63,915 nucleotides of DNA from NCBI GenBank assembly GCA_018829445.1, contig JAHJTV010000020.1:1-63915 (forward strand), written 5' to 3'. Shown piece after piece: positions 12,423 to 28,715 of the stretch. Each line of letters opens with the position of its first letter. Positions within the stretch are counted from its first letter, which is position 1. This DNA comes from a bacterium. GTDB taxonomy: Bacteria > SAR324 > XYD2-FULL-50-16. The translations under genes and the position numbers were made by a program. The notes beneath the pieces are model-generated. The model was not told where the DNA came from, did not search any database, and saw only the letters and a program-made list of their open reading frames with translations.

Positions 12423-14054
12423 ATGGCCGAACAAACTGCTGATAGGTATATGTCTGATTTTCAGACTCAATTCCAAAACTTCTTTCAAGGATTGACAACA
12501 GCTAAGAAAATCTTTCTGTTTTCTGCCCTTGGCGCTATTCTAATTGGATTGATTTCGTTTGTTTACTTTTCCCAACAGGTTACATGGGCACCACTTGTCA
12601 GCGGGGTTACGCAGCAGGATGCCGGAAACATAGCACGTAAGCTTGAAGAATTAAATATTGAATATGTCCTTCAACCGGGCGGCAACACCATCCTGGTTCC
12701 TGCGTCATCTGTTGATAAGGTGCGTCTTGATATCGCCTCTTCAGGAATTCAAATGGGAGGAGTGGTTGGTTTGGAGATTTTTGATGAAAGTAACTTCGGA
12801 GCCACGGAATTCCAGCAACGCATCCAATATAAAAGAGCATTAGAGGGTGAACTGGTTCGTTTGATAACCCAAATCAATGTTATTAACTCAGCAAAAGTAA
12901 ATTTGGCCATTCCCGAAAAATCCCTATTTTTAGATGAAGAGAAACGTCCAACGGCTTCGGTCGTTGTTGACGTCCCGAATAATGCCCGATTATCTCAAAA
13001 AGAAGTGAATACCATTCTTAACCTGGTATCCGGGGCGATTCCCGGGATGATTCCGGAAGATGTTCGTGTTGCGGATCAAAGCGGTGCACTCCTATCAAAA
13101 GGACTCACTGATCCTGATAACTCAGAAGCCAGGAATAAGAACTATTATTATCAACAATTGGTTGAACAGCGATTGCAGGATAAACTTGTAACTCAATTAG
13201 AAAAAATTACCGGTCCTGACAGAGTTGAAGTAAGGGTTTCTCTCAAAATGGATTTTGATTCCAGTGAAATTACCGAAGAGTTGGTTGATCCCGACCTGTC
13301 TGCCATTTTGAGTCAGGAGGTGGCATCCGAAGATTCAACCGGTTCAAGGTCTATTCCTGTTGGTGTTCCCGGTGTGACTTCAAATTCTCCTGAGGTTAGG
13401 GCAGGTGCAAGTGAAGTCGCCAACGTCTCAAATGTCAACAAAACAACCAAGCGAACCAATTATGTAAATAGTAAACGCAACATCAAAAGCTCGAAATCGG
13501 CAGGCAGAATTCTGAGAATGAGCGTTGCGGTATTACTTGATGGTCGTTATGAATATATTCGCGATGAAAGCGGTGAGGTTGTCGGTAGTTCTCAGTATAT
13601 GCCAAGAACGCCGGAAGAGATGGAAACAATTGAACTGATAGCTAGACAAACCGTTGGATTTGAACCGACACGGGGCGATACCATCTCAGTAAAAAATATG
13701 AAGTTCTCCAAACCTCTGGTGGAACAAGAGAAACTTAAGGCTCACCAACGTGATGCGACTAGAAAATTCATCATAGACTTGATCCGATTCGTCCTGGTAG
13801 GTGTGATTATCGTACTGCTTATCTTCATGGTGATCCGTCCAATGGTACAGAAACTCTCTGCAAAACCGGAAGATCTGGATCTGCTTATGGGATTACCTAC
13901 CACAATTGGAGAACTGGAAGGAGAAGAACTCGAAATACCGACGGAAAAAGAAACCGGTATTCCACCAAGGGACAAAATTATCGAAATTGCAAGGCAAGAT
14001 CCTCTCAAAACTGCTACACTTATCCGAAACTGGCTGCGTGAGAAGAAAACCTAA
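12423..14054 (+). CDS. fliF: Flagellar MS-ring protein FliF
   Basis: Forms the inner-membrane MS ring that seats rotor and export gate. The 543-residue protein has TM1 at about residues 30-50, the ring-building motif with FSQQVTWAPLVSGV, then LNIEYVLQPGGNTILVP and RIQYKRALEGELVRLI. After the Ser/Asn-rich periplasmic loop (about 290-350) comes TM2 (about 455-475). The C-terminal cytoplasmic tail with ARQDPLKTATLIRNWL is the segment known to bind FliG, so a FliG must exist although it is not encoded next. Confidence 0.97.
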   Translation: MAEQTADRYMSDFQTQFQNFFQGLTTAKKIFLFSALGAILIGLISFVYFSQQVTWAPLVSGVTQQDAGNIARKLEELNIEYVLQPGGNTILVPASSVDKVRLDIASSGIQMGGVVGLEIFDESNFGATEFQQRIQYKRALEGELVRLITQINVINSAKVNLAIPEKSLFLDEEKRPTASVVVDVPNNARLSQKEVNTILNLVSGAIPGMIPEDVRVADQSGALLSKGLTDPDNSEARNKNYYYQQLVEQRLQDKLVTQLEKITGPDRVEVRVSLKMDFDSSEITEELVDPDLSAILSQEVASEDSTGSRSIPVGVPGVTSNSPEVRAGASEVANVSNVNKTTKRTNYVNSKRNIKSSKSAGRILRMSVAVLLDGRYEYIRDESGEVVGSSQYMPRTPEEMETIELIARQTVGFEPTRGDTISVKNMKFSKPLVEQEKLKAHQRDATRKFIIDLIRFVLVGVIIVLLIFMVIRPMVQKLSAKPEDLDLLMGLPTTIGELEGEELEIPTEKETGIPPRDKIIEIARQDPLKTATLIRNWLREKKT

Positions 14055-14078
14055 GCTTCGGAGTATAAAAATAGAAAC

Positions 14079-15002
14079 ATGGAAATTTTCAATCCTCCAA
14101 ATTTTTCGGATGATTCAGCTGAAACAGGAGTTTCAGCTGAAATATTAGATAGCTATGATTCATTTGCAGGCCCTGCAGATCAGGCGGAAAGTTTTGTTCC
14201 CAATATTCTGGAAGAAAAAACCTATGGAAAAAAGAAGAAGGTAGACTATTCGGATTTTAATTCAGCTGAATTTAATGAAGTTGATACTTTGTTAACTAAT
14301 GTTGAAGAATATTCAAGGCGGATCCGCGAAGATGTTGATAAATATGCCAGGAACGTAAGGAATGAAACCGACCTGTTTCGATCTGAAACTGAAATGGAAC
14401 TGGCAAACGCTCTGATTAAGAGAATCGAAGCAGAGAAACAGGCCGCCGAGATAATACAAAATGCTGAAAATACAAGAGATGAAATACTAAATCAGGGTAG
14501 AGAGGAAGGTTATCAGGCTGGCTTTGCCGAGGGGCTTGCCAAACAAAAAGAAGAAAACGAAACTAACACGGGTGCTGTTTTAAACCTTCTGAATGAGCTG
14601 CAAACCCTTAGAAAAAGTATGATGCGGAAAAATGAGGAACAGATAGCCCGTTTGAGTATGTTGATTGCACAAAAAGTGGTTCACAAAAAATTGACAACGG
14701 AAAAAGAACTGATCCTGGAAATGTTAAAAAGCGCCATGCAACATTTTGAGGGCATGGGAAATATAAAAATCAAACTGCATCCGATTGAATTTGATTTTAT
14801 AGCTGCCAATCAAAACGAACTGAAAAAATACCTCGATGAAGATCAAGTGATAAACGTGAGGGCTGATCAAAAGATAAATCCCGGGGCTCCGTTAATTGAA
14901 AGTGATTTTACCGTGGTTGATCTCGATCTGAATAAACAGTTCAAAGAGATTAAAAACAAAATTGATGAATGCGTTGAGGACAGAAGAATCTTATTTACCT
15001 AG
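14079..15002 (+). CDS. fliH: Flagellar assembly protein FliH
   Basis: Stator/regulator of the export ATPase FliI. The 307 residues comprise a poorly conserved acidic N-terminus, a long coiled coil (about 90-190) containing GREEGYQAGFAEG (the GxxxG-like FliH repeat) and a C-terminal region with LSMLIAQKVVHKKL and IKIKLHPIEFDFI resembling the FliH/V-ATPase E-subunit domain. It directly follows fliF (24 bases) where fliG would be expected, and precedes fliI. Confidence 0.88.
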   Translation: MEIFNPPNFSDDSAETGVSAEILDSYDSFAGPADQAESFVPNILEEKTYGKKKKVDYSDFNSAEFNEVDTLLTNVEEYSRRIREDVDKYARNVRNETDLFRSETEMELANALIKRIEAEKQAAEIIQNAENTRDEILNQGREEGYQAGFAEGLAKQKEENETNTGAVLNLLNELQTLRKSMMRKNEEQIARLSMLIAQKVVHKKLTTEKELILEMLKSAMQHFEGMGNIKIKLHPIEFDFIAANQNELKKYLDEDQVINVRADQKINPGAPLIESDFTVVDLDLNKQFKEIKNKIDECVEDRRILFT

Positions 15003-15030
15003 TCAGAATTAATCTTTTCGTGAGCCAACC

Positions 15031-16365
15031 TTGTTTGATTTCGATCCATATATTGAACTGATAGATAAAACACAAACCGAAAAAATCGAAGGCAAAGTCG
15101 ATGAGGTTATAGGCTTTTTAATCAAAGCTCATAACCCCGGTTTAAGGATTGGAAGCAGCTGCAATATCATTGATTCAAATACCAATGCGATCATTGCCGG
15201 AGAAGCCGTAGGCTTTAAAGACGACAAGATTCTGGTAATGCCTTTGGCAGATATCAGAGGAGTCGGTCCGCAAAGCAGAATTGTACCCACCACAGATCAA
15301 CCTTTTGTCCCCGTTGGAAAATCACTCCTTGGAAGAACAATTGATGGGCTGGGAAACCCGATTGACGGTTTGGGACCCATCGAAGCAGATGAGAAAGTAG
15401 CGTTATACAGGGAACCAATTAATCCTCTTTTGAGAAGACGAATTGATGCACCTTTGGACGTGGGTATCAAAGCGTTAAACGGCGTTCTGACAGCAGGTAA
15501 AGGTCAGCGTCTGGCGATTCTTTCAGGGTCCGGGGTTGGAAAATCGGTTCTGCTGGGAATGATGGCCAGAAATACAACAGCTGATGTGAACGTGATCGCA
15601 CTGATTGGCGAGCGTGGAAGAGAAGTAAAAGAGTTTATCGATAGAGACCTGGGTGAAGAGGGTTTAAAACGTTCCATTGTAGTTGCTGTAACGTCGGATC
15701 AGTCGCCCCTGGTTAGGATCAGAGGTGCTTTTCTGGCAACCGCTGTTGCAGAATATTTTAGGGAAAAAGGCAAAGATGTTCTGTTAATGATGGACAGTGT
15801 AACCCGATTTGCCATGGCACAAAGGGAGATTGGTCTTGCGGTTGGAGAACCCCCCACGACAAAAGGATATCCCCCTTCAGTTTTTGCCTATCTTCCCAAG
15901 CTGCTGGAGCGAGCCGGAAATTCCGATTCAAAGGGATCACTAACCGGGTTCTATACAGTACTGGTAGAAGGTGATGACCCCCTTGATCCTATAGGGGATG
16001 CGGTTCGTTCTATTGTCGATGGACATATTTTGTTGGATAGAGAGATTGCGGCCCAGGGACATTATCCGGCCGTTGATGTTTTACGATCCAAAAGTCGTGT
16101 GATGGTTGATGTGGCATCAACGTCTCATCAGGAAAATGCAAAAAGGCTGATTCAGACTCTTTCCACGTACAAAGAAGCGGAAGACCTGGTAAATATCGGA
16201 GCTTATGTGAAAGGATCAAATCCGAGAATCGATTATTCCATAAAAAAAATCGAAGAGATCAACGGGTTTTTACAGCAGGGGATTTTTGAGAGCGCTTTGT
16301 TGCTTGAAAGCGAAGCGATGTTGGAGCAGATGTTCCTTGATTACCCTTTTAAACAGAAGAGATAG
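15031..16365 (+). CDS. fliI: Flagellum-specific ATP synthase FliI
   Basis: Hexameric ATPase of the flagellar type III export apparatus. The Walker A motif is LSGSGVGKSVLL (about residues 168-179); ALIGERGREVKEF and VLLMMDSVTRFAMAQREIG (Walker B region) follow, as do the FliI-type GEPPTTKGYPPSVF and GSLTGFYTVLVEGDD. Length of 444 residues is normal. The start must be the TTG at 15031: the frame is closed at 15010 and there is no ATG or GTG between, so initiation may be weak or coupled to fliH. No fliJ follows. Confidence 0.96.
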   Translation: MFDFDPYIELIDKTQTEKIEGKVDEVIGFLIKAHNPGLRIGSSCNIIDSNTNAIIAGEAVGFKDDKILVMPLADIRGVGPQSRIVPTTDQPFVPVGKSLLGRTIDGLGNPIDGLGPIEADEKVALYREPINPLLRRRIDAPLDVGIKALNGVLTAGKGQRLAILSGSGVGKSVLLGMMARNTTADVNVIALIGERGREVKEFIDRDLGEEGLKRSIVVAVTSDQSPLVRIRGAFLATAVAEYFREKGKDVLLMMDSVTRFAMAQREIGLAVGEPPTTKGYPPSVFAYLPKLLERAGNSDSKGSLTGFYTVLVEGDDPLDPIGDAVRSIVDGHILLDREIAAQGHYPAVDVLRSKSRVMVDVASTSHQENAKRLIQTLSTYKEAEDLVNIGAYVKGSNPRIDYSIKKIEEINGFLQQGIFESALLLESEAMLEQMFLDYPFKQKR

Positions 16366-16454: not shown

Positions 16455-16979
16455 TTAAACAATAAGCTTTTTTATTTTTTTTAGGAATTCGTCTTTCTCC
16501 TTAAGATTAGTCTTTAAAACCAGAATAATACCAAATTCGCTTTTCAGATGGTGTATAATTCCGCAGAGCATGCACCCTAATGGCAGATTAAGCATTGATG
16601 CTGTCCGTTCATCAATGGGGTAAAAGCCGTCTTCATCGGGTAACTCAGTTTTTACCAGTTTTATTGCACTTTCAATTTCTCGAATAGTGATGTTTTGAAG
16701 ATAGGATACGATCTTTTTGGGTATGTATCCCTTGTTTATCATAATTCCCGCCTGATGCGTCATGGTATCTGTTGTATTTGCCATAACAGCAACGGTTGCT
16801 TTAACATCATGATTCCGCATGATTTTTAAACAATTTGCCAGCAGGTCTTTTGTTAATTTTTGATCGCTAATCAGGTAGGGTGTTTCCTTTTTTACTTCCG
16901 GCGCAGAGTCAACTTTTCTCTGTTGAAAATACTGATTTTCACCCTTTAAACTCTTATTAAACAGATTAAATAACGCCAT
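16455..16979 (-). CDS. Unrecognised 174-residue protein
   Basis: I do not recognise this protein. It is soluble, with a charged N-terminal stretch (about 1-35), then a helical domain with KDLLANCLKIMRNHDVKATV and GIMINKGYIPKKIVSYLQNI, and a segment LPLGCMLCGIIHHLKSEFGI containing a CxxC pair. It converges with fliI (89-base gap) and diverges from the EamA operon. Nothing links it to the flagellum except position. Confidence 0.6.
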   Translation of the reverse strand: MALFNLFNKSLKGENQYFQQRKVDSAPEVKKETPYLISDQKLTKDLLANCLKIMRNHDVKATVAVMANTTDTMTHQAGIMINKGYIPKKIVSYLQNITIREIESAIKLVKTELPDEDGFYPIDERTASMLNLPLGCMLCGIIHHLKSEFGIILVLKTNLKEKDEFLKKIKKLIV

Positions 16980-18153: not shown

Positions 18154-18307
18154 GTGTAACATACCTCTTCAAAATACCATTTTCCTTATTCTTGAAAAGC
18201 AAAAAAGATGTGAGACAAAAACAGGAAAGGAGATCTGGAAGAAGTTGTTTGATGAGAATGATTCAATTCGGATACTGAAAACAAAAGATAACGTACTGGA
18301 AGTATAA
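18143..18307 (+). CDS. Hidden 54-codon ORF coupled to the hydrogenase-like genes
   Basis: ATG at 18143 opens a 54-residue frame that ends with TAA at 18305-18307. It overlaps the transporter gene by 11 bases and its stop shares a base with the next ATG (TAATG), so both ends show the tight packing of real operon genes. GGAAGGAG lies about ten bases upstream of the ATG, with GTCAGG closer. The product is a small soluble, charged protein starting MNNRCNIPLQN, with two cysteines (residues 5 and 23) and a helical KTGKEIWKKLFDEND segment. I recognise no family. It may be an assembly or anchoring factor for the adjacent complex; that is inference from position only. Confidence 0.6.
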   Translation: MNNRCNIPLQNTIFLILEKQKRCETKTGKEIWKKLFDENDSIRILKTKDNVLEV

Positions 18308-19317
18308 TGGAAAACAGACTACCTAGGAGAAAGTTCATCCAACAAATGATAATCGGAAGCTTATCAGTTCCAACACTACTGGAACTAATGACTTCCAGTT
18401 TGCTGGCTATTACGGAAACGCCGAAGCAGCCAATCATATGGTTGCAAGGACAAAGTTCGGGAATTCATCGTTCCGGGATATGGAGTTATCCTGGGTTTCA
18501 TTCCTACATCTCTGAGCATTTTTCCATTCTGTCAGCCGATACGCCGAATCTGAATTCAATCGCTCTGGAACTGTCTGATAGAGGAAAGCAACATATTCTA
18601 ATTCTGGATGGTTACTTTTCAGATGATTTGGATGATCCCATCAATAATCTGCTAAAAGATCTCATTGTCATTTCCAGGGCTGTAATTTTGCTAGGTAATG
18701 AAGCAGCATATTGCTCAAAAAAACCTGAAGGGTTTTTAAATCTGGAAACAGAACTTTTGCATCTGGTAGAAACGCCATTTTTAAAACTGCCGGGAAATCC
18801 AGTACCTATCAGACACCTGGTGGGCTCTCTTAATCACATGATTCTGTACGATTTTCCAAAACTTGATGAGCACAGACGACCAGTCATGTTTTATTCACAA
18901 AGGATCTGCGAACGCTGTCAATTCAGGGGTGATTTTGAGCAGGGAAATTTTGTTCGCTATTTTGGCCAGAAAGAGGGCTGCTTGTATTGGCTGGGATGCA
19001 AAGGACCCATTACCAGAAATTCCTGTGCAATCGAAAAATGGAATGGAACATCAACCTGGTGTGTTAGTGCTGGAAGTCCATGCACCGGGTGTTCCGAGCC
19101 TGATTACCCTGATAATAATGGTTTGGGGTTATTTGGTCAGATTTCATCAGAAAGTGCGCCAATTAATTCATTTTTTATAAGAAACTCATCAACCCTGGCC
19201 CAGGGAGCATTTGCAGTTACTGTTTCCGGGGTTGCCATTCATGCCATATCCAGAAAAACCTCCTCTTCGCTAAAAGACGAGTCTTATTTTAACATTTCGG
19301 AGGATGAGAATGTATAG
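18307..19317 (+). CDS. [NiFe]-hydrogenase small-subunit homologue lacking proximal-cluster ligands
   Basis: The 336-residue protein has a Tat signal (PRRKFIQQM, residues 6-14) and aligns with HyaA-type small subunits throughout. By comparison with E. coli HyaA, the four ligands of the proximal [4Fe-4S] cluster are replaced by Ser51, His54, Glu132 and Asn164 (PIIWLQGQSSGIH, LLGNEAAYC, LKLPGNP). The distal-cluster ligands remain as Cys201, Cys204, Cys225 and Cys231, with Cys201 at the usual His position (FYSQRICERC). The medial cluster has Cys240, Cys259 and Cys262, plus Cys252 at the proline that normally keeps it [3Fe-4S], so a [4Fe-4S] medial cluster is expected. A C-terminal hydrophobic anchor (AFAVTVSGVAIHAI) is kept. 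Without a proximal cluster it cannot take electrons from a Ni-Fe site. The frame is intact, so decay is unlikely. Confidence 0.9.
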   Translation: MENRLPRRKFIQQMIIGSLSVPTLLELMTSSLLAITETPKQPIIWLQGQSSGIHRSGIWSYPGFHSYISEHFSILSADTPNLNSIALELSDRGKQHILILDGYFSDDLDDPINNLLKDLIVISRAVILLGNEAAYCSKKPEGFLNLETELLHLVETPFLKLPGNPVPIRHLVGSLNHMILYDFPKLDEHRRPVMFYSQRICERCQFRGDFEQGNFVRYFGQKEGCLYWLGCKGPITRNSCAIEKWNGTSTWCVSAGSPCTGCSEPDYPDNNGLGLFGQISSESAPINSFFIRNSSTLAQGAFAVTVSGVAIHAISRKTSSSLKDESYFNISEDENV

Positions 19318-20773
19318 CACTCTGATTGATCGTTTGCCCCGAATTGAAGGTTATCTGAGGGTCGTGTTGTCGCAAACGGAGACAAAAAATGAGATCCTTC
19401 TAAAAAGTGGACTGTCCACGCATCTCGATTTGAATCTTCAGGAAAGGTTTCCTCTTGAAGCGCTACACCTTACTCAATCATTGTCAGAACATTCATGTGT
19501 TGCCCACGCAATAGCATCTGTATCAGCCCTTGAAGATTACCTGAAGATCTACCCAACCGAGACAGGCCTTAGAATTCGACAAGTTCTGCTGGATCTCTCT
19601 ACCATTCGATCCCACATTTATCATTTCTACTGGGAAATCTTACCCGGGTATTTAAATTTTGAGCATTATGAGCAGTCATCGAAAAACGAACCCATGTTTT
19701 ATTTCGGGCAATTGCGCAGGGAAAAGGAGAAAGGTGATTTAGACCTGGAAACGGGGAAAAAGCTATTGAGTAGCATCTCAAAAGCAGCCAAGGTCATCGA
19801 TTTACTTCAGAAAAGCATGACGCTATTTGGGGGTAAATACCCGGTTATTATGAATCAGATTCCAGGTGGAGTGTCAAATTTCTCCCTGTCAAGAAGCTTG
19901 AATATGACAGTAATCCGCAATCTGGAACTGTGCAAATCTTTTATAGAAGAGACCTGGCCTTTGGATTTGAAAGAGTTCGTTCAAAATATACCAAATTCAA
20001 CCCTTGTATTAGAGACTAATCCAAATTTGATTAGTTTTGGCTCCTTGCCGATTGAACAAAATAAAGGGAAGACCTCAAATTATTCGGAAGGCGTTTTGCT
20101 CAAAGGGAAACTGGAGCCTGTCAACGAATTAAAGATAACTGAAACCTTGACAGACACCTATTATTTACCAACAGATAAATCCGACAACAACCCGCAAAAA
20201 TTGTATGCCTTGAATAAACCGGGAGCAAGAACCTGGATCAAGGGAGCTCGCTACAATGAGCAGACCATGATTACAGGTGCCCTTTCTCGTATGATGATTA
20301 CACATCTGGTTGGGGGAAACCTGGAAATCAGTGATATTATCAGTCAGATGATTGATGATCTTGAACTCACTTTTGAATCTCCTAATTGCACAGCCAGCCG
20401 CCTACTATCAGAGGTATTGGAAGGTCGAATCTATCTTAAGAATATTTTTAAGAACCTCTTTGAGATTAGTGGCGATTCAGATACGAACCGTAAAACCCGC
20501 TTCAACTTTTCGCCGGAAGGTGTTGGTATCGGAAAAATTGAATCTCCAAGCGGATCATTACTTCATCAAGTTTATATTTCAAACAGTCGGATTAAAAAAT
20601 ATGTGATTATTTCACCGATGAATTGGAATTTTTCTCCCGGGGACGAAGAGGGTAAAAAAGGGGTGGTTGAAACTGAACTAAATCAATTGACAAAAGCTCG
20701 AGACCTGACTCCTATTATGATCGCACGGCATCTTCATTCATATAATGCTCAGATTCTGGACGGAACACGGTAA
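19310..20773 (+). CDS. [NiFe]-hydrogenase large-subunit homologue lacking all Ni-Fe cysteines
   Basis: The 487-residue protein retains large-subunit landmarks: RIEGYLRV (residues 11-18, normally RIEGH), HAIASVSALED (66-76), TLFGGKYPVIMNQIPGGV, RTWIKGARY and MNWNFSPGDEEGKKG. The first active-site CxxC is replaced by Ser59 and Ser62 (SEHSCVAH), and the C-terminal DPCxxCxxH by NAQILDGTR, giving Gln481, Asp484 and Arg487. The chain stops exactly where the maturation endopeptidase would cut a normal subunit, so no processing tail remains. A Ni-Fe(CN)2CO centre cannot be bound in the known way. The ATG at 19310 is six bases after GGAGG (19299-19303); the gene overlaps the small subunit by eight bases. 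No hyp maturation genes are in the window. Confidence 0.9.
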   Translation: MYSTLIDRLPRIEGYLRVVLSQTETKNEILLKSGLSTHLDLNLQERFPLEALHLTQSLSEHSCVAHAIASVSALEDYLKIYPTETGLRIRQVLLDLSTIRSHIYHFYWEILPGYLNFEHYEQSSKNEPMFYFGQLRREKEKGDLDLETGKKLLSSISKAAKVIDLLQKSMTLFGGKYPVIMNQIPGGVSNFSLSRSLNMTVIRNLELCKSFIEETWPLDLKEFVQNIPNSTLVLETNPNLISFGSLPIEQNKGKTSNYSEGVLLKGKLEPVNELKITETLTDTYYLPTDKSDNNPQKLYALNKPGARTWIKGARYNEQTMITGALSRMMITHLVGGNLEISDIISQMIDDLELTFESPNCTASRLLSEVLEGRIYLKNIFKNLFEISGDSDTNRKTRFNFSPEGVGIGKIESPSGSLLHQVYISNSRIKKYVIISPMNWNFSPGDEEGKKGVVETELNQLTKARDLTPIMIARHLHSYNAQILDGTR

Positions 20774-20780
20774 AAAAGGG

Positions 20781-21332
20781 ATGAAAATTCAATTTCTAGT
20801 GTTAAAAATATACTCAAGTATCATTAAGCGAATTCACAGTTGGGGGCTATTATCCCTAATACTGTTAATTTATCTCTCTTCTCTGGCGATCAAGCTTCCC
20901 ATAATGGTAACTCTTTTCAGTCGATTGGGACTAATGACCCTGCATGTTTTTTGCGGATTTATAACAGTGTTTTTTCTCATTATCATGGCCTATAATTTTT
21001 TATTGGACACAATTTTTAAAAAAGATAGTCCGGGTGATGAGAAAAAAAAAGGTTCAGGTATTCTATCACCTCATGAATCTGGCAACAGGTTTTTGGTTGA
21101 ATTGCTATTTTACAGTTCTTTTTTTGTAGTTTGTTTTCTTGGAGTGGTTTATTACGTTATAAAAGAATTTTCCCTACAGGGAACCTATTTCAGTCAAAAC
21201 GTTGCTTCTTTGGCTCATGTAATTGTCGGATGGTTTTTTATATCGATTGTATTTATAAGGTATTACCTCAAAATCACTCAATGGTTCAGTGACGTATTCC
21301 AGTATCTCCGGGAGAATGAAGCCCAATATTAA
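20781..21332 (+). CDS. HyaC-like membrane cytochrome b subunit
   Basis: Four hydrophobic helices in 183 residues match the cytochrome b anchor of group-1 hydrogenases, which passes electrons from the distal cluster to quinone. His19 (RIHSWG), His55 (MTLHVFCG) and His146 (LAHVIVGW) correspond to three of the usual four haem ligands. The fourth, 14 residues after His146, is Arg160 (FIRYY), so perhaps only one haem is fully ligated. The start at 20781 follows an A/G-rich stretch; an in-frame ATG at 20745 would overlap the large subunit. Placement directly after the two hydrogenase-like subunits supports the identification despite low sequence conservation. Confidence 0.75.
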   Translation: MKIQFLVLKIYSSIIKRIHSWGLLSLILLIYLSSLAIKLPIMVTLFSRLGLMTLHVFCGFITVFFLIIMAYNFLLDTIFKKDSPGDEKKKGSGILSPHESGNRFLVELLFYSSFFVVCFLGVVYYVIKEFSLQGTYFSQNVASLAHVIVGWFFISIVFIRYYLKITQWFSDVFQYLRENEAQY

Positions 21333-21365: not shown

Positions 21366-22052
21366 ATGAATCCACTGGAACTCACAGGTCGGACTCGTTC
21401 CCACATAAAACAGCACGAAAATCCCCGTTTTGCAGCCCAAACGGAAACGGTAGCGGCTTTTTTTGATATGAAAACGGCTGCAGCACGTGAAGGCATTAAA
21501 TTGCATCCCTTCAGCGCCTTCAGAGATTTTAATACTCAATTAAAAATCTGGAATAAAAAATATCAAGGAGAGCGGCCCCTTTATTCGCAGTCAGGGAAGC
21601 TAATTGACTACGCTTCTTTATCCAAACCGGAGTTAATTCACTACATTCTTTCCTGGTCAGCTTTGCCTGGTGCGAGTCGACATCATTGGGGAACCGATAT
21701 TGATGTCATAGATCTGGCAACAATAGATGAGCATTATCAGGTAGAACTCTTACCGGAGGAATCGGAAAAAGGAGGAGTGTTTTATCACTTACACTGCTGG
21801 TTAGATGAGAATATGCATCGATTTGGCTTTTTCAGACCTTACCAGAAATACAATGGCGGTATCAATCCGGAACCATGGCATTTAAGCTATGCTCCCATAT
21901 CAAATCGTGCCCTTGATCTTTTAACCATTGAAATACTGGAAGAGACAATCAAGACCGAAGATATTCATGGAAAAGAGTATGTGCTGGAGAATCTGCCAAC
22001 CATTTACAGAACCTACATCGTCAATATATGTAAAGGTGATGGTTTTCTCTAA
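21366..22052 (+). CDS. M15B-family D-alanyl-D-alanine carboxypeptidase-like protein
   Basis: The VanY-type zinc motifs are present: ASRHHWGTDIDV (SxHxxGxDxD, about residues 108-119) and EPWHLSY (WxH, about 176-182), which supply two His, one Asp and the catalytic Glu. PFSAFRDFNTQLKIWNKKY matches the YRS/FR-type substrate region. The 228-residue protein has no obvious signal peptide, unusual for an enzyme that trims periplasmic peptidoglycan peptides. It begins 33 bases after the cytochrome gene and is probably in the same transcript. Confidence 0.87.
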   Translation: MNPLELTGRTRSHIKQHENPRFAAQTETVAAFFDMKTAAAREGIKLHPFSAFRDFNTQLKIWNKKYQGERPLYSQSGKLIDYASLSKPELIHYILSWSALPGASRHHWGTDIDVIDLATIDEHYQVELLPEESEKGGVFYHLHCWLDENMHRFGFFRPYQKYNGGINPEPWHLSYAPISNRALDLLTIEILEETIKTEDIHGKEYVLENLPTIYRTYIVNICKGDGFL

Positions 22053-22565: not shown

Positions 22566-22605
22566 AACTGGAAAGAACCCTTCTGACAGGGTCTCTTTTC
22601 CAGTT
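22566..22605. terminator. Bidirectional stem-loop between the peptidase fragment and fliW
   Basis: AACTGGAAA...ACCCT pairs with AGGGT...TTTTCCAGTT with a small internal mismatch and a short loop (TCTGAC). It overlaps the fliW stop codon and separates convergent genes. There is no proper T-tract on either side, so it could also be an RNA-stabilising 3' end. Confidence 0.5.
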
Positions 22606-23107
22606 AAACAGCTTGTTTCTGCAATGTTTCTTTAGAAGATGCAAGAGACGTTTTTCCAATTTCGTCATCAACCTTATCTTCCGTCGATTGAATAAGCTTC
22701 TCACGAGTTGTGTATTCCGTATCAACAAGAACAAACTGATGTCCTAATCTTTGCGTTGGATTGATGATCAGCGGTCCTTGCAGATTTACCGTCACTTCAT
22801 GAATATTTCTCGACATTGTTACAATGCAATACACCAACAGGTTTTCTGTTGAATCTGTTTTGATCAGTTTTAAATCGTCGCGAGTCACATCAAAATGATA
22901 ATCGGGTTTGGAAATGAGTGGATCGACCACTACAAAAGCCAATGCCGGATTATCAAGTGATTGAAGCATTCTGAACGGTATTGCTCGATCTTCGTCAATG
23001 AATGTAAAACGAGTACAGTCAGGGAAGCCAAGAGGACCGTCCGGGAAGATAATAATATCTTCTGATTTAACATCAATCTGTCCAAAACGAGTTGTATCAA
23101 ATCTCAT
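22604..23107 (-). CDS. fliW: Flagellar assembly factor FliW
   Basis: FliW binds CsrA and releases it when flagellin is secreted, coupling filament export to translation. Signatures include IIIFPDGPLGFPDC, FTFIDEDRAIPFRMLQSLDNPALAFVV (split across about residues 38-64) and NLQGPLIINP. I start at 23107 (MRFDTTRFG), where AGAGG is seven bases upstream, giving 167 residues; an in-frame ATG at 23137 lacks a binding site. The tail after about 135 is longer and more charged than usual. It is the last gene of flgM-flgN-flgK-flgL-csrA-fliW. Confidence 0.95.
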   Translation of the reverse strand: MRFDTTRFGQIDVKSEDIIIFPDGPLGFPDCTRFTFIDEDRAIPFRMLQSLDNPALAFVVVDPLISKPDYHFDVTRDDLKLIKTDSTENLLVYCIVTMSRNIHEVTVNLQGPLIINPTQRLGHQFVLVDTEYTTREKLIQSTEDKVDDEIGKTSLASSKETLQKQAV

Positions 23108-23202
23108 TTTTGAGCCTCTAAATTGAGGTTGTCCCATTAGTAGGGAGTTTTCCGGGCGTTAAGCCCGAATTTCTACAAAAAAAATGATTGGAAAATGAAT
23201 TA

Positions 23203-23436
23203 TTACTTTTTCCGTTTCCAAATATCAGTCAATGCTTTCAGACTTAAAGGACTCTGCTGAGCGGCCAGTCTGTTTTCATCTTGAATTCTCTGGTAGATTT
23301 CTTCTCGATGAATGCTATATTTTTTGGGAGCCTGAATGCCCAGTCGAACCTGTTTGCCTTTGATTTCCAATACTTGGATCTTGATATCATCTCCAATCGT
23401 GATACTTTCTCCCAACTTCCTTGTTAAGATGAGCAT
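23203..23436 (-). CDS. csrA: Carbon storage regulator CsrA
   Basis: RNA-binding repressor that blocks ribosome access at GGA motifs. The first 50 residues ([43 protein letters not shown]) are canonical, including the basic and beta-strand residues that contact RNA. The 77-residue length is slightly extended at the C-terminus, as in many flagellar CsrA proteins. The ATG at 23436 has GGAGG six bases upstream; the apparent earlier start is a GTG within that binding site. It sits between flgL and fliW. Confidence 0.97.
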
Positions 23437-23437
23437 T

Positions 23438-23455
23438 TTCACCCTCCATGGTGAA
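23438..23455 (-). promoter_or_regulatory. Predicted CsrA-binding hairpin over the csrA ribosome binding site
   Basis: In the csrA mRNA, UUCACC and GGUGAA form a perfect six-base stem around the loop AUGGAG. This places GGA in a hexaloop directly over the Shine-Dalgarno sequence, two bases before the AUG. High-affinity CsrA sites have exactly this form (ANGGA in a small hairpin loop), so CsrA probably represses its own translation. This is read from the sequence; binding is inferred. Confidence 0.6.
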
Positions 23456-23551
23456 GAAAGAACTTTGAAAACCAGATATCACGAGGGATATCTTCAGCCC
23501 AATTATAGGTCTATTCTAAGCAACTTTAATCATAAGCACTATAAATTGGGA

Positions 23552-25336
23552 TCACCTTAAAAAATCAATCAATGTCGGTTGGATTAATTTGGCAGAGGCG
23601 TCTAAAGCTGTCTTATGCTTTAGTTCTGCTTTGTTTAAATCAACCGCTCCTTTCGCCAGATCCATATCTTCCAGTTTGGACAACTCCTCCCTTCTGAAAT
23701 CCATGTTCTTTTGGATTCTCTCTTCGCTGGATTCCAGCTCTTTAAACGTAGAACCAATCTGGCTTCGGAATTTAAGTACCTGGTTAATGGACTTATCAAT
23801 ATCATCAATACTCTTCATAACTGACAATTGATCATCATCTTTTAAAGCCTCTGATAATCGGTTCAGCATGTCGAATACATCCGCAGTGCCTTCATCAACC
23901 GGGTCCTTCTTAAATAGTTGCTTTGCATTTATATTCAAAGCAACTTTGATACCATTATCAACGAGAACCTCTTTAATCTGTTCATTCCCTTTATATTTAA
24001 CGAATTCGTTTTCCCTAAATTGGAATTCCAACCCTTCTCTGAAGAACGGATCCTGGTTTGCCTTAAATTCCAGATCAACTTTGTTGCTGGCTTTTCCTTC
24101 AGGATTGAAGATTTCAGTCTTTCTATTTAAAACCTTGGGCTGAGACCATGTTTTCCCGCCATCATCACTTATGATGATCTGGGCCAACCCAAATGTTCCA
24201 CCCTTGATTACGCGAACCAGGTAGTTGTCTTTGGAAAAACCGTTGAATACCGCTTCATATTCAGCTGGATCTATCTCAATATCCACTCCAGTATCTGTTC
24301 CCTCTTCAGCTTTGGCAGCAGTTGCAGCATCCCCTGGCATCCCAATCTGTTCGAAGTTCATTCGATTAAAAAAACCGGTCGTATCCTCCCCAAATTGGAG
24401 GTTTATGCCCTTAGTCGGGTACAGATAAATAGAGTTGTCAATTCCGATGTCCCCGGCAATTTTTGTCTTAAACCCAATCGGAGAATGGGGATCTTCAACA
24501 TAGCCATCTTCTGCAATGGCTGCATCGTTAATCTTTTTTATGATCTGTTCAATCGATTCTGTTCCATCAAGAACAATGACGATTTTCTTGGGAAGATTGT
24601 TCTCCCCTTCAGTCTCATCAATTGAGGGGGAAGCAGGTTTTTTTTCGTCCGTTATTTTTGCATCTTCTGCTTCTTCCATCCCTGTCGGCTTGTCTGCCTT
24701 TTGTTCGGCATCCAGTTTTTCTAACTGGCTTAATTTATCTTCAGATTGATATTCGGGAGTTTCATTCAAATAAAGGGTAAATGAGCCAGGCAGTATTCCA
24801 TTCAAAGGTTCACTTTGATTAATCGGAATAATTTTCTCCGCACTCTTAATGCGGGCACCGAAGAATTTAACAACCGGATCTGTAATTTCTGAGCTCACTT
24901 CCAGTGGTTTGGTAAATGTTTTTGTGCCTGCAAAAAGATAAAGTTTTCCCTCTTTTTTATTCCCAAGATCAATTAAATCTTTGGTGATGATTTTTATTTC
25001 ATTGGCCAGAGTACTTCTGTTTTCCTTTGTGGAGGCTCCGTTTGCACCTTCAAGTGCGAGATCCTTGACATGTCTTAGGGCTTCTCCAATCTGTTTGATG
25101 GTTTCTTCGTTGGTATTTAACCAGACTTTGTCCGCACTGATGTTTTTTTCCAGTGTCTTAGAGTGGTTAATCGATGTTCGAAAATCCTGAACCTTTGCCG
25201 CACCTACCGGATCATCGGATGGTTTGTTCAATATTTTGCCATTCGAAATGCCAACCATTAGCTCCTGCAGTTCCTCGGAATTTGTATTCAAATTCTTCGT
25301 TACTGCATTATGTTTGGTTAATTCGGTTACACGCAT
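23552..25336 (-). CDS. flgL: Flagellar hook-associated protein 3 (FlgL)
   Basis: Hook-filament junction protein. The N-terminal flagellin-like D0/D1 region (SEELQELMVGISNGKILNKP, DDPVGAAKVQ) and the C-terminal helix (LDASAKLIQPTLIDFLR) flank a large variable middle, giving 594 residues against roughly 300-420 in well-known FlgL proteins. Residues about 193-250 form an acidic, low-complexity stretch rich in Glu, Lys, Asp and Pro, probably a surface-exposed linker. It follows flgK by 47 bases. The flagellin gene itself is not in the window. Confidence 0.92.
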   Translation of the reverse strand: MRVTELTKHNAVTKNLNTNSEELQELMVGISNGKILNKPSDDPVGAAKVQDFRTSINHSKTLEKNISADKVWLNTNEETIKQIGEALRHVKDLALEGANGASTKENRSTLANEIKIITKDLIDLGNKKEGKLYLFAGTKTFTKPLEVSSEITDPVVKFFGARIKSAEKIIPINQSEPLNGILPGSFTLYLNETPEYQSEDKLSQLEKLDAEQKADKPTGMEEAEDAKITDEKKPASPSIDETEGENNLPKKIVIVLDGTESIEQIIKKINDAAIAEDGYVEDPHSPIGFKTKIAGDIGIDNSIYLYPTKGINLQFGEDTTGFFNRMNFEQIGMPGDAATAAKAEEGTDTGVDIEIDPAEYEAVFNGFSKDNYLVRVIKGGTFGLAQIIISDDGGKTWSQPKVLNRKTEIFNPEGKASNKVDLEFKANQDPFFREGLEFQFRENEFVKYKGNEQIKEVLVDNGIKVALNINAKQLFKKDPVDEGTADVFDMLNRLSEALKDDDQLSVMKSIDDIDKSINQVLKFRSQIGSTFKELESSEERIQKNMDFRREELSKLEDMDLAKGAVDLNKAELKHKTALDASAKLIQPTLIDFLR

Positions 25337-25383
25337 TTTTAATTAGCTCGATATAAGGTTCAACTGTTTATTATCCAGTTAAG

Positions 25384-27108
25384 TTACATATTCACCAAAG
25401 TCTGTGTCATCTGATCGACAGTCCCCAAAAACTTGGCTGAAGATTGATACGCTCTCTGGTATTTGACCATGTTTGTCATCTCCTCATCCAGATTCACAGA
25501 GGAAATGGAATCCCTTAAGGCTTCATACTGCTCAAGCATCTGATTGTGAGTCTTTAACCCCTTTTGAGCATCCTGGACTTTTAAACCGATGTCAGTAATC
25601 TGGGAATTATAAAATTCATCAAATGTGATGGTTTCTTCGTTCATGGTTGATTTAAATTGCAGGTCGGCAATTTCAGTAGCAATAGTATTGTCGCCCGGAA
25701 TTAAATCTGATCCTGCAACAATCTTCATTTCATCTTCAACTAATTCCGGTGCAATATAAATATCCTCTGCCCCTCGATTCACATGAAAAAAACAATTAAA
25801 ACCCATTACAGCCATAACATTTGTTTCATCTTTTCCAAAAATAAACTGCTTCCCAAGTCCGGAAGTTATGGAAACCGATCCATCCGGGTTGAGGTAGGCC
25901 TTTATTTTATTGACATCCTTGAGGACTTCTACTCCCTCTTCTGTTGTGGTATAACCACCGGCAGCCCTGTTTATCTTCTCAATGATTGACTCGATTGTGT
26001 CAATGCCTGCCACAACATTGACGGATATGGTTTCTTCGATCTCCTTTTCCTGGTTGAGAATCTTCAGGGTAAAGTCCCCGGATTTTAAATAGGGCAAGGG
26101 ATTGGTCAGCTGTTCGCTGTCAAATTTGTATGCGCTGGTTTCATCAAGCTTAATCCCATTTATACCGGTACCCCCTGAATGGGCATTATTGACTCTGAAA
26201 GCAAGTTCCTGCGCCAATTCGTCCAGATCCTGCTTGTACTTATTGATACTGTTATCACGCTGGTTAATCATCTCCTTCAGACTTCCGGTTTTTAAGATAT
26301 CCGTAATATCCGTTTTGATACCAGGCGGATTAGTGAGACCGATTCTGACATTCCCCTTCTCTTCAGCAACAAGATATGGGGCCAACTCATAATTTTCCCT
26401 GCCATGTACCAGGTGCTGGCCATTGGGAATCTGAATTTCCAGAGTGCCCCTGGGCCCTTCAAACCATTTGATTTCTATCTTCCCGGAAAGTTGCTGCAAC
26501 AAAACTTCTCTTTGATCACGGGCATCGTTTGCCGGGAGAGCACGATTTTCCAGTTGCTCTACCTGCTTATTGAGCATGGCAATTTCGCGAGTCGTCTGGT
26601 TGATATCCAACAACTCTGCTTTAATTCGACCGTTAAGGCTCTCGTTGAAATCTGTGAGTCTCTTGTTGAATGATCTGAAGTCTTCAGCCAGTTTCATACC
26701 TTTTGATAAAAGCGCTTTTCGGTGTGTTCCGCTTTCAGGTTCGGTTGCCACAGAACTCCAGGCCCCCCAGAATTCATCCATTGAGCCACGAAGTCTTGTT
26801 CCTTCAAGATCGGTGTAAATGATTTCAGCTTCAGTCAGAATTTTCTCCTTTGCCTCCCATGATCCAACGTTGGTTTGTTCATCCACTACTTTCTGTTTGG
26901 TGAATCCATCCTGGATTCTACGGATGTTTTTTATGTCTACACCAGTTCCCTTTCCATCACTCATGGGTCTGGACGCAGCTTGGTTGACTTCCTGTCTTGA
27001 AAATCCCTCCGTGTCGACATTGGCGATATTATGCCCCGTAGTCGCTTGCCCCATTTGAGAGGTTGACAGTGCCTTTTTCCCTATTTCAAAACTACCAAAC
27101 AGTGACAT
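25384..27108 (-). CDS. flgK: Flagellar hook-associated protein 1 (FlgK)
   Basis: First junction protein between hook and filament. LSTSQMGQATTGHNIANVDTEGFSR-like N-terminus (about 13-37) shows the rod/hook signature NIANVDTEGFSRQ, and the C-terminal VNLDEEMTNMVKYQRAYQSS with FLGTVDQMTQTLVNM is typical of FlgK. The coiled-coil LNKQVEQLENRALPANDARDQRE region (about 180-203) is also a family feature. Length of 574 residues is normal. Confidence 0.95.
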   Translation of the reverse strand: MSLFGSFEIGKKALSTSQMGQATTGHNIANVDTEGFSRQEVNQAASRPMSDGKGTGVDIKNIRRIQDGFTKQKVVDEQTNVGSWEAKEKILTEAEIIYTDLEGTRLRGSMDEFWGAWSSVATEPESGTHRKALLSKGMKLAEDFRSFNKRLTDFNESLNGRIKAELLDINQTTREIAMLNKQVEQLENRALPANDARDQREVLLQQLSGKIEIKWFEGPRGTLEIQIPNGQHLVHGRENYELAPYLVAEEKGNVRIGLTNPPGIKTDITDILKTGSLKEMINQRDNSINKYKQDLDELAQELAFRVNNAHSGGTGINGIKLDETSAYKFDSEQLTNPLPYLKSGDFTLKILNQEKEIEETISVNVVAGIDTIESIIEKINRAAGGYTTTEEGVEVLKDVNKIKAYLNPDGSVSITSGLGKQFIFGKDETNVMAVMGFNCFFHVNRGAEDIYIAPELVEDEMKIVAGSDLIPGDNTIATEIADLQFKSTMNEETITFDEFYNSQITDIGLKVQDAQKGLKTHNQMLEQYEALRDSISSVNLDEEMTNMVKYQRAYQSSAKFLGTVDQMTQTLVNM

Positions 27109-27230
27109 TATGGATTAATGTTTATAATTATAGTCTTATCCGGTTATGGATGAATAAATAACGTATGCTTCGACAGTAAGCACAATCACAGATAGTAATT
27201 CTAGTTTTATTCCAAAAAGCCGGTTAACAA

Positions 27231-27743
27231 TTAAATCGATTTTTTTAAGAAACAGGCTCCAGTAGGTTTTGTGATTATACCCTTACCGGAGTAGGTGGAA
27301 GTCCTGTTAAAGGATTTATCTATTACTCCCTGTATCTCATTAAAACATGCAATTCTGGCAATCGCGGTTTCAGCATTCCTTTTTCCGACAGGCCTGATCT
27401 CCTTAATTAAATTCAGCAGTGACTGTCGCAGTTCCAGCAGTTTTTTTTGATCTTCCCCCTTGCTTTGTTGTATGACATCTTTCAAAGAGATATTGGCCTT
27501 GAGCCTGAATTCCTTTTTATAAGTCTCCATTATCACCAGCCGGTCTCTTTCCAATTCGAAGATTCTTTTTGTGGCAAAATCACGAATGGAATGGATTTCT
27601 TTCAGTTCACCCAGACTGCATGAGGCTGGCAATTGGTTTTCTCTTCCCAGCACTTCGTGCAAAACAGTGTGAATTTCAAGTTGAGATTCCAGATTGGCAA
27701 TAAGGTTCTTAATACAACCATCTGATTCATATACAGGTTCCAT
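27231..27743 (-). CDS. flgN: FlgN-family flagellar chaperone
   Basis: A 170-residue, mainly helical coiled-coil protein located between flgM and flgK, the standard place of FlgN, the export chaperone of FlgK and FlgL. Conservation is low, but IKNLIANLESQLEIHTVL and AIARIACFNEIQGVID fit the FlgN helices and length. The Gly/Ser/Thr-rich tail probably is flexible. The assignment rests mostly on position and helical pattern. Confidence 0.75.
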   Translation of the reverse strand: MEPVYESDGCIKNLIANLESQLEIHTVLHEVLGRENQLPASCSLGELKEIHSIRDFATKRIFELERDRLVIMETYKKEFRLKANISLKDVIQQSKGEDQKKLLELRQSLLNLIKEIRPVGKRNAETAIARIACFNEIQGVIDKSFNRTSTYSGKGIITKPTGACFLKKSI

Positions 27744-27799
27744 CCTCAGCCTCTTCTCAAACTGAATTAGTCTAATGACATTGAGTTTCTTTTATTGAT

Positions 27800-28093
27800 C
27801 TAAGAAAGATCTTCAATGAGAGAATCCTTAAGAAGTTTTTCAGCAAGCTTCTCATTGTCGATTTTATATTCACCGTTTTTGATTTTCTCCCGTAGTTCTT
27901 TTATCTTCTTCAAGTTCATGTCAGGTTCAGCTTCAATTTTTGAGCGAAGTTTATTCACCACAAAATGATCTGTAACCGACTTTTTCTGTACAGAAGATTT
28001 ACTGGAATCTGTTTGAGCAGCTTCCTTTTCTTTCCCCTTTTGAATGCCTTTATCCTGAATTGGAATTTTGGGCACTTGACTTTCAATTTTCAT
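27800..28093 (-). CDS. flgM: Anti-sigma-28 factor FlgM
   Basis: Inhibits FliA until it is exported through the finished hook. The disordered N-terminal half (Lys/Gln/Ser-rich) and C-terminal helical half with VNKLRSKIEAEPDMNLKKIKELREKI and GEYKIDNEKLAEKLL match FlgM. The ATG at 28093 is chosen because GGAGG lies five bases upstream; the frame's earlier start includes part of that site. It is first in its operon, behind a sigma-28-like promoter, which gives the usual negative feedback on late genes. Confidence 0.92.
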   Translation of the reverse strand: MKIESQVPKIPIQDKGIQKGKEKEAAQTDSSKSSVQKKSVTDHFVVNKLRSKIEAEPDMNLKKIKELREKIKNGEYKIDNEKLAEKLLKDSLIEDLS

Positions 28094-28147
28094 ATTAACC
28101 TCCAAGATTAATATCTCGAATCAAACGTGGAAATATTTTCTTATTCT

Positions 28148-28174
28148 TTATCGGTTTGATTGAGTAAAACTTAA
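28148..28174 (-). promoter_or_regulatory. Sigma-28 (FliA) promoter of flgM
   Basis: Read on the minus strand, TTAAGTTT (28174-28167) and ACCGATAA (28155-28148) are separated by exactly 11 bases. The FliA consensus is TAAAGTTT-N11-GCCGATAA, so 14 of 16 positions match. It stands about 55 bases before the flgM start and marks flgM-flgN-flgK-flgL-csrA-fliW as a late-class operon. Confidence 0.8.
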
Positions 28175-28375
28175 GCATGTCGGCAAAAAACTCCTAATAA
28201 GGTATGGTAACAACCTAGGTGAAATTCAATTGATTCGCACACTCAAGCATTTTTAAACTTTTAGTTACACAACAGATTTCAAAAATATTCAGTTTAATAA
28301 TTTTGGTATATTTAAGATAAGAGATAGATTGTATACCATCTCTTATAATCTTTATCGGTATTCGATGGCAAAACT

Positions 28376-28702
28376 TTAGCTCTTTTTGGTTTGTTCATAG
28401 ATTAAGTCACTTAGACCCAATGCTCGGTTTTGTGAGATTAGTTTTGCGTAGTTTTCATCCAGCATATCCTGGAAGATTTCTTCCCCGCGACCGCCAGTCA
28501 ACAAAGTTTCTTTATCACTTGAACTACGCATTACCTGGATGAGTTTGTGAACAAATATTTCTTCAAATCCGTCACATGCATCCCTTAGTTTTTTATTATA
28601 TGCTTTGGTGTCTTCCTGATTGAATTGAGCCTTTCGCAGCAGATTTTTACTCAATTTTGATTGATTAAGTTGCTGGAACATAGCTTCCGTATCTAGTTTC
28701 AT
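28376..28702 (-). CDS. flgJ: Rod-binding protein, FlgJ N-terminal type
   Basis: The 108-residue protein corresponds to the rod-cap half of FlgJ: DACDGFEEIFVHKLIQVMR, TGGRGEEIFQDMLDENYAKLI and LGLSDLIYEQ. The peptidoglycan-hydrolase domain of enterobacterial FlgJ is absent, which is normal for many non-gammaproteobacteria. The start at 28702 (MKLDTEAMF) has AAAGG nine bases upstream; ATG at 28708 is an alternative. It directly follows flgI (about 13 bases). Confidence 0.92.
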   Translation of the reverse strand: MKLDTEAMFQQLNQSKLSKNLLRKAQFNQEDTKAYNKKLRDACDGFEEIFVHKLIQVMRSSSDKETLLTGGRGEEIFQDMLDENYAKLISQNRALGLSDLIYEQTKKS

Positions 28703-28715
28703 TGTCATCAACCTT

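What the first reader, a model, noticed from the sequence alone, without database searches (positions are those of the whole stretch)
18307..21332. Hydrogenase-like trio with no Ni-Fe site and no proximal cluster
The large subunit has Ser59, Ser62, Gln481 and Asp484 where the four Ni-Fe cysteines belong, and ends exactly at the usual maturation cut. The small subunit has lost all four proximal-cluster ligands. Distal and medial clusters, Tat signal, membrane anchor and a cytochrome b remain. Loss is confined to the catalytic end in both subunits while all three frames are intact and overlapping, so this looks like a repurposed complex (redox sensor, or electron transfer between an unknown partner and the quinone pool) and not a dying hydrogenase. 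NuoD of complex I is a precedent for a hydrogenase fold without Ni-Fe, but it is not of this membrane-bound group-1 form.
Basis: partly seen in the sequence, partly recalled or inferred. Interest (0 to 1): 0.95.

Follow-up and report, generated by a model that had tools for sequence, protein, structure and literature searches.

The report
Hydrogenase-derived complex lacking its hydrogen site
A trio of bacterial genes descended from a hydrogen-splitting enzyme has, in all 17 genomes where it was found, lost the residues that hold the nickel-iron site and the neighbouring iron-sulfur cluster but kept those for two other clusters, so it is predicted not to use hydrogen and likely passes or senses electrons at the membrane for an unknown partner.

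Summary
In all 17 bearing genomes, both subunits have no cysteine at any of the eight Ni-Fe and proximal-cluster positions, while the distal site is Cys4 (canonical: His+Cys3) and the medial site has four cysteines. Wider sets agree: 70 large-subunit rows (69 distinct) and 78 small-subunit rows (75 distinct), with one stray cysteine in each set. The family forms one branch with support 100/100 and, in the searches run, lies only in the SAR324 phylum, in two of its families. Nine of the 17 genomes show no HypD, so Ni-Fe maturation looks dispensable. Three of the eight vacated positions are newly fixed (large Ser59 and Asp484, small Glu132) and five drift. I read it as a hydrogenase-derived, membrane-anchored two-cluster electron relay or sensor whose partner and direction are unknown. 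In 13 of 17 genomes it sits beside flagellar export genes, at different loci in the two families: a lead, not proof. Complex I and Ehr also have hydrogenase folds without Ni-Fe, but this family is exported, group-1-like, and has lost the proximal site too. dN/dS could not be measured.

The parts
18307..19317 (+). small subunit (336 aa): RR (Tat-like) motif, vacated proximal site, Cys4 distal and four-Cys medial sites, C-terminal helix
18457..18468 (+). codons of Ser51 and His54, first two vacated proximal-cluster positions
18700..18702 (+). codon of Glu132, third vacated proximal position; Glu or Asp in 75 of 78 rows and 17 of 17 genomes
18796..18798 (+). codon of Asn164, fourth vacated proximal position (varies)
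18907..18999 (+). distal cluster ligands Cys201, Cys204, Cys225, Cys231 (Cys201 replaces the usual His)
19024..19092 (+). medial cluster ligands Cys240, Cys252, Cys259, Cys262
19310..20773 (+). large subunit (487 aa from this ATG; the open frame has an ATG at 19304), no Ni-Fe ligands, no maturation tail
19484..19495 (+). codons Ser59 to Ser62, first vacated Ni-Fe cysteine pair
20750..20761 (+). codons Gln481 to Asp484, second vacated Ni-Fe cysteine pair
20781..21332 (+). cytochrome b-like membrane subunit (open frame from 20745; likely start 20781), two conserved His
   Evidence: (Pfam match below its cut-off)
12423..16365 (+). flagellar fliF, fliH-like and fliI genes upstream; neighbourhood, not part of the complex
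   Evidence: fliH named by position and cluster, not by a family match
21366..22052 (+). VanY-like D-Ala-D-Ala carboxypeptidase gene, downstream neighbour in 7 of 8 loci of family f1

Best explanation
The trio is a membrane-bound complex descended from group-1 [NiFe] hydrogenases that has lost the ligands for the Ni-Fe site and the proximal cluster, is predicted not to split or make hydrogen, and likely works as a two-cluster electron relay between the quinone pool and an unknown periplasmic partner. Shown by sequence: loss of both ligand sets, Cys4 distal and four-Cys medial sites, an RR export motif, two conserved cytochrome b histidines, open large-subunit frames in 17 of 17 genomes, and presence in genomes where HypD was not found. 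Inferred: both sites carry [4Fe-4S] clusters; electrons pass between quinone, haem b, distal and medial cluster; the emptied catalytic end, with Ser59, Asp484 and small-subunit Glu132 fixed beside the ancestral Glu13, His66 and Arg314, is a docking or ligand site and not a redox site, because it would be too far from the medial cluster without a new cofactor. Direction of flow and partner are unknown.
Against: No partner gene is shared by both branches. No biochemical data. dN/dS not measurable. The large subunit is less conserved than a canonical one between the same two genomes (61% against 84%). The cytochrome b match is below Pfam's cut-off, its TM1 His is present in only 4 of 9 rows, and it is the least conserved of the three (39% window to G047). 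The AF2 model of the small subunit's Fe-S part is poor and no dimer was modelled. An RR motif is seen in 59 of 78 small-subunit rows; many of the other 19 begin downstream of it.
Confidence: 0.5

Rival explanations
1. Redox sensor for motility: the clusters would report the redox state of the quinone pool and the emptied catalytic end would pass a conformational signal to flagellar export or the motor.
For: Beside fliH-fliI in 7 of 8 f1 genomes and beside fliR-flhB in 6 of 9 f3 genomes, two different flagellar loci; both sets are export-apparatus genes. No trio beside the fliI loci of 2 f3, 6 f4 and 1 f2 genomes examined.
Against: G045, G003 and G008 have it elsewhere, and G010's contig is too short to tell. 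Housekeeping genes share the f1 block. Flagellar genes occur in 51 of 52 genomes, with or without the trio. The catalytic end would face the periplasm (inference from the RR motif). The chance of such adjacency was not computed.
Confidence: 0.2
2. A new enzyme: the old Ni-Fe cavity binds another substrate or cofactor around Ser59, Asp484, Glu13, His66, Arg314 and Glu132 and exchanges electrons with the medial cluster.
For: Three of eight vacated positions are newly fixed and the second-shell Glu, His and Arg are kept.
Against: No conserved metal-ligand set at the proximal positions in both branches. By the edge distances and 14 angstrom limit quoted in PMC4771823 the gap to the medial cluster would be too long without a new cofactor (my inference).
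Confidence: 0.15
3. A decaying hydrogenase or a passive remnant kept by chance.
For: The large subunit diverges faster than a canonical one; dN/dS could not be measured.
Against: Open frames in 17 of 17 genomes, invariant cluster cysteines in 17 of 17, two long branches from one origin.
Confidence: 0.05
4. An accessory or decoy partner of the cell's working hydrogenase.
For: The window's own genome has two hydrogenases with all four cysteines on other contigs.
Against: Eight of 17 bearing genomes show neither HypD nor a canonical hydrogenase match; a ninth, G049, lacks HypD but has a canonical fragment at a contig end.
Confidence: 0.04

Closest known systems
Group-1 membrane-bound [NiFe]/[NiFeSe] hydrogenases (D. 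vulgaris NiFeSe, D. baculatum NiFeSe, E. coli Hyd-1, C. necator MBH)
   Different: No Ni-Fe ligands, no proximal ligands, no maturation tail, distal Cys4 instead of His+Cys3; present without HypD
Ehr complexes and complex I NuoD (group 4-like)
   Same: Hydrogenase-fold large subunit without Ni-Fe ligands; Ehr described so in a passage of PMC6349859; P0161 and P0162 show Ser-Ser-Ser-Gly at the four positions
   Different: Those carry PF00346/PF00329-type subunits and, from recall, are cytoplasmic-side and keep the proximal (N2-like) cluster; this family carries PF00374 only, an RR export motif, and has lost the proximal site
Regulatory H2-sensing hydrogenases (HupUV/HoxBC; recalled)
   Same: A hydrogenase dimer used, possibly, for sensing
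   Different: From recall, those are cytoplasmic and keep the Ni-Fe site; here it is lost

Membership tests
Group-1 [NiFe] hydrogenase | Four cysteines holding Ni-Fe in the large subunit | tested here: not met
   0 of 4 in 17 of 17 genomes; one stray Cys in one of 70 rows
Group-1 [NiFe] hydrogenase | Proximal cluster ligands in the small subunit | tested here: not met
   0 of 4 in 17 of 17 genomes; one stray Cys in one of 78 rows
Group-1 [NiFe] hydrogenase | Distal cluster with His and three Cys | tested here: not met
   Cys4 in 78 of 78 rows; His+Cys3 in 9 of 9 canonical rows
Group-1 [NiFe] hydrogenase | C-terminal extension removed at maturation | tested here: not met
   1 to 3 residues after the fourth position. 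Weak criterion: three canonical SAR324 large subunits also end at the cut site
Group-1 [NiFe] hydrogenase | Large and small subunit folds of this group | tested here: met
   Pfam, fold comparison
Group-1 [NiFe] hydrogenase | Twin-arginine export signal on the small subunit | tested here: met
   RR motif in the window and in 59 of 78 rows; most others start downstream of it. Export itself untested
Group-1 [NiFe] hydrogenase | Cytochrome b subunit | tested here: inconclusive
   Pfam 27.1 bits against cut-off 30.1; two conserved His in 9 of 9 aligned rows
Group-1 [NiFe] hydrogenase | H2 oxidation or production | not testable with these tools
   needs the purified complex
Ehr / complex I (group 4-like) | Ni-Fe ligands lost from a hydrogenase-fold large subunit | tested here: met
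   (works like, not a member)
Ehr / complex I (group 4-like) | PF00346-type large subunit | tested here: not met
   only PF00374 matches; P0161/P0162 carry PF00346
Ehr / complex I (group 4-like) | Antiporter-like membrane subunits in the operon | tested here: not met
   none among the genes read beside the window trio; by reading and family matches, not a dedicated search

The most novel reading that the evidence does not exclude
A SAR324-wide pseudo-hydrogenase in which the electron-exit half of a group-1 enzyme became a quinone-wired redox sensor that gates flagellar protein export or motility, signalling through an acid-lined pocket where hydrogen was once split.
Probability: 0.12. Interest if true: 0.93.

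Novelty: new variant of a known kind. Interest (0 to 1): 0.78.

Why it matters
Hydrogenase folds without Ni-Fe are known from complex I and Ehr. This family took another route, in the exported group-1-like form: it gave up the catalytic end together with the cluster next to it and kept the far clusters. It is maintained in two families of an abundant uncultured phylum, including genomes in which no HypD was found. If confirmed it is a second way for a hydrogenase to become a different redox machine. It is also an annotation trap: two named relatives in public records are called 'nickel-dependent hydrogenase large subunit' (P0040, P0041), which would overstate H2 metabolism in SAR324.

Tried and rejected
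dN/dS: dS was undefined (saturated) in all but two of the pairs printed, so no ratio is claimed. A shared replacement cofactor at the proximal position: rejected because three of the four positions differ within and between branches; a flavin-type loop in the small-subunit N-domain was considered by eye and dropped for the same reason. Acyl-CoA dehydrogenase as partner: after the trio in 7 of 9 f3 loci, not found in the f1 loci searched, so not a general partner. Flagella as a predictor of the trio: uninformative, since FlhA and FliG each match in 51 of 52 genomes. Plasmids: 107 records matched, all under 60% identity; the five listed were at 24-25% and are annotated as hydrogenases. Promoter scan: 18 promoter-like sites against 16.3 expected, no signal; 10 terminator-like sites against 5.5 expected, not followed up. 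Papers: searches over an open-access library listed no title or abstract start that describes this family; most subscription journals and preprints are not in that library. Passages only were seen of PMC9031357 and PMC4782131, PMC6349859, PMC4771823 and PMC4747160; all other papers were seen as search listings only. Limits: protein searches scored only the 7997 and 7996 candidates sharing most words, so counts are lower bounds; the fetched relatives are draft genomes, and the window's own genome is 92.97% complete with 5.35% contamination.

Full report

It is a family. Protein searches returned 56 and 76 hits, then 81 with a profile. With nine deeper members taken from genomes, 70 large-subunit rows form the family; one pair is the same gene and six rows are fragments, so 69 are distinct. 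Position by position: C1 is Ser in 62 of 65 readable rows, Gly 2, Thr 1; C2 Ser 44, Thr 8, Asn 7, Ala 3, Gly 2, Leu 1 of 65; C3 mixed (Gln 34, Ser 14, His 8, others, and one Cys in P0042) of 68; C4 Asp 63, Glu 4, Asn 1 of 68. The ancestral Glu (61 of 62), Arg (69 of 70) and His (63 of 65) remain. Only 1 to 3 residues follow C4 (several genome-derived rows are cut at the match end). Of 78 small-subunit rows (75 distinct) none keeps the proximal set (P0112 has one Cys). The distal site is Cys4 in 78 of 78 against His+Cys3 in 9 of 9 canonical rows. The medial site has its three cysteines and a fourth in 78 of 78, against a Cys at the fourth position in 2 of 9 canonical rows. That fourth position is where entries 7odg and 7odh carry P242C. 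Since NiFeSe-type enzymes also have it (recalled), it may be inherited and is not claimed as an innovation. Tabulated genome by genome, both subunits of all 17 bearing genomes have 0 of 8 vacated ligands, distal Cys4 and four medial cysteines.

One origin, one phylum so far. A tree of 31 family and 18 canonical large subunits separates them with 100/100 support and splits the family into two supported branches (100/98 and 100/100). In 52 genomes of the window's phylum the family is in 17: 8 of 10 in its own family f1, 9 of 10 in f3, 0 of 1 in f2, 0 of 31 in f4. Named records of f1 loci are MAGs called SAR324 cluster bacterium, Candidatus Lambdaproteobacteria, Deltaproteobacteria or bacterium. 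Among 383 genomes searched with a profile, those 17 score 517 bits or more and the next match 336. Of the next 14 best matches outside the phylum, 13 were fetched and all 13 have the four cysteines (12 by pattern, L126 read); G298:C5 was not read. A scan of 84,980 species genomes found 17 loci: 7 of the family and 10 others, of which 7 show all four cysteines, 2 are partial with the two they cover, and 1 (L022) could not be judged at its second pair. That scan used two peptide patterns and missed f3, so absence elsewhere is only as good as these searches.

Independent of hydrogenase. HypD is found in 8 of the 17 bearing genomes (in G046 below its cut-off) and missing in 9: G002, G003, G004, G005, G006, G009, G010, G048 and G049; HypF is below its cut-off in the same nine. 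Five of the nine are at least 91% complete. G049 carries a canonical fragment at a contig end, so its missing HypD may be incompleteness; the other eight show no canonical match. These are drafts, so single absences are weak and the pattern is the evidence. The window's genome itself has two hydrogenases with all four cysteines. So the trio appears neither to need Ni-Fe maturation nor to serve only a working hydrogenase.

Constraint. Large-subunit frames are open in all 17. dS is saturated, so dN/dS is not measurable. Between window and G047 the large subunit is 61% identical, the small 72%, cytochrome b 39%, FliI 85%, FliH 66%; the canonical C19 large subunit is 84%. The family evolves faster than a canonical enzyme, which counts against strong overall constraint, while the cluster cysteines do not change at all. 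Among the eight vacated positions three are now conserved (large Ser59 and Asp484, small Glu132; 16.6%, 11.9% and 22.7% of columns are as conserved or more) and five are not (44-72%).

How it likely works. The kept parts are the electron-exit half of a group-1 hydrogenase. A passage of PMC4747160 says that changing the distal Cys3His site to Cys4 in D. fructosovorans cost about 95% of H2 oxidation, and that P242C in Hyd-1 turns the medial cluster into a 4Fe4S centre, probably of more negative potential. The corresponding residues are natural here, so the relay is likely tuned for another couple. From the edge distances quoted in PMC4771823 (7.7, 10.6, 11.1 angstrom; limit near 14) I infer that the medial cluster could not reach the old Ni-Fe position in one step. 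Hence the emptied end is more likely a docking or ligand site, and electrons would enter or leave at the medial cluster through a partner. This part is inference.

Neighbourhood. In f1, 7 of 8 loci lie just after fliH-fliI, G045 being the exception. In f3, 6 of 9 lie beside fliR-flhB (five of these contigs also show flhA and flhF), next to an S24/LexA-like gene present in 8 of 9, with an acyl-CoA dehydrogenase gene after the trio in 7 of 9. G003 and G008 show no such flagellar neighbour in the stretch held, and G010's contig is too short. The two flagellar loci are different. The trio is absent from the fliI loci examined of 2 f3, 6 f4 and 1 f2 genomes and of G045, and from ten flhA loci examined. 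The double placement is suggestive, but its chance probability was not computed, flagellar genes are near-universal in the phylum, and housekeeping genes share the f1 block. It is kept as a rival and as the novel case.

Known relatives. A passage of PMC6349859 describes Ehr complexes as lacking the residues that coordinate Ni and Fe. P0161 and P0162, with PF00346-type domains, show Ser-Ser-Ser-Gly at the four positions, so such loss has happened more than once. The present family differs in its exported group-1-like form and in the lost proximal site. SAR324 papers seen by passage mention group 1d hydrogenases in aquifer genomes and flagellar genes (PMC9031357; PMC4782131); none of the passages seen describes this family.

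Noticed in passing
L088 2855-4054 (+), L089 3432-4646 (-), L090 2855-3994 (+): A second, shorter (about 380-404 aa) hydrogenase large-subunit-like protein without the four-cysteine set and with no small subunit seen beside it, next to a DnaQ-like exonuclease gene, in three f1 genomes (Pfam PF00374 5.3e-10 for the L090 copy).
   Followed up: partly
L073 7229-7876 and matching genes in L065-L068, L070-L072: An S24/LexA-like gene sits between the trio and the flagellar genes or beside the trio in 8 of 9 f3 loci; it may regulate either side.
   Followed up: partly
L079, L085, L086: Canonical four-cysteine hydrogenase large subunits in SAR324 that end exactly at the maturation cut site, with no tail; possible near relatives of the family's ancestor.
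   Followed up: no
window 16455-16979 (-): A 174-aa open frame between fliI and the EamA gene with no Pfam match at E 0.001, shared with G046 and G047.
   Followed up: no
window 12423-16365 and 22604-29840: The trio lies inside a largely flagellar region: fliF, fliI, fliW and flgL by family match, others by reading.
   Followed up: partly
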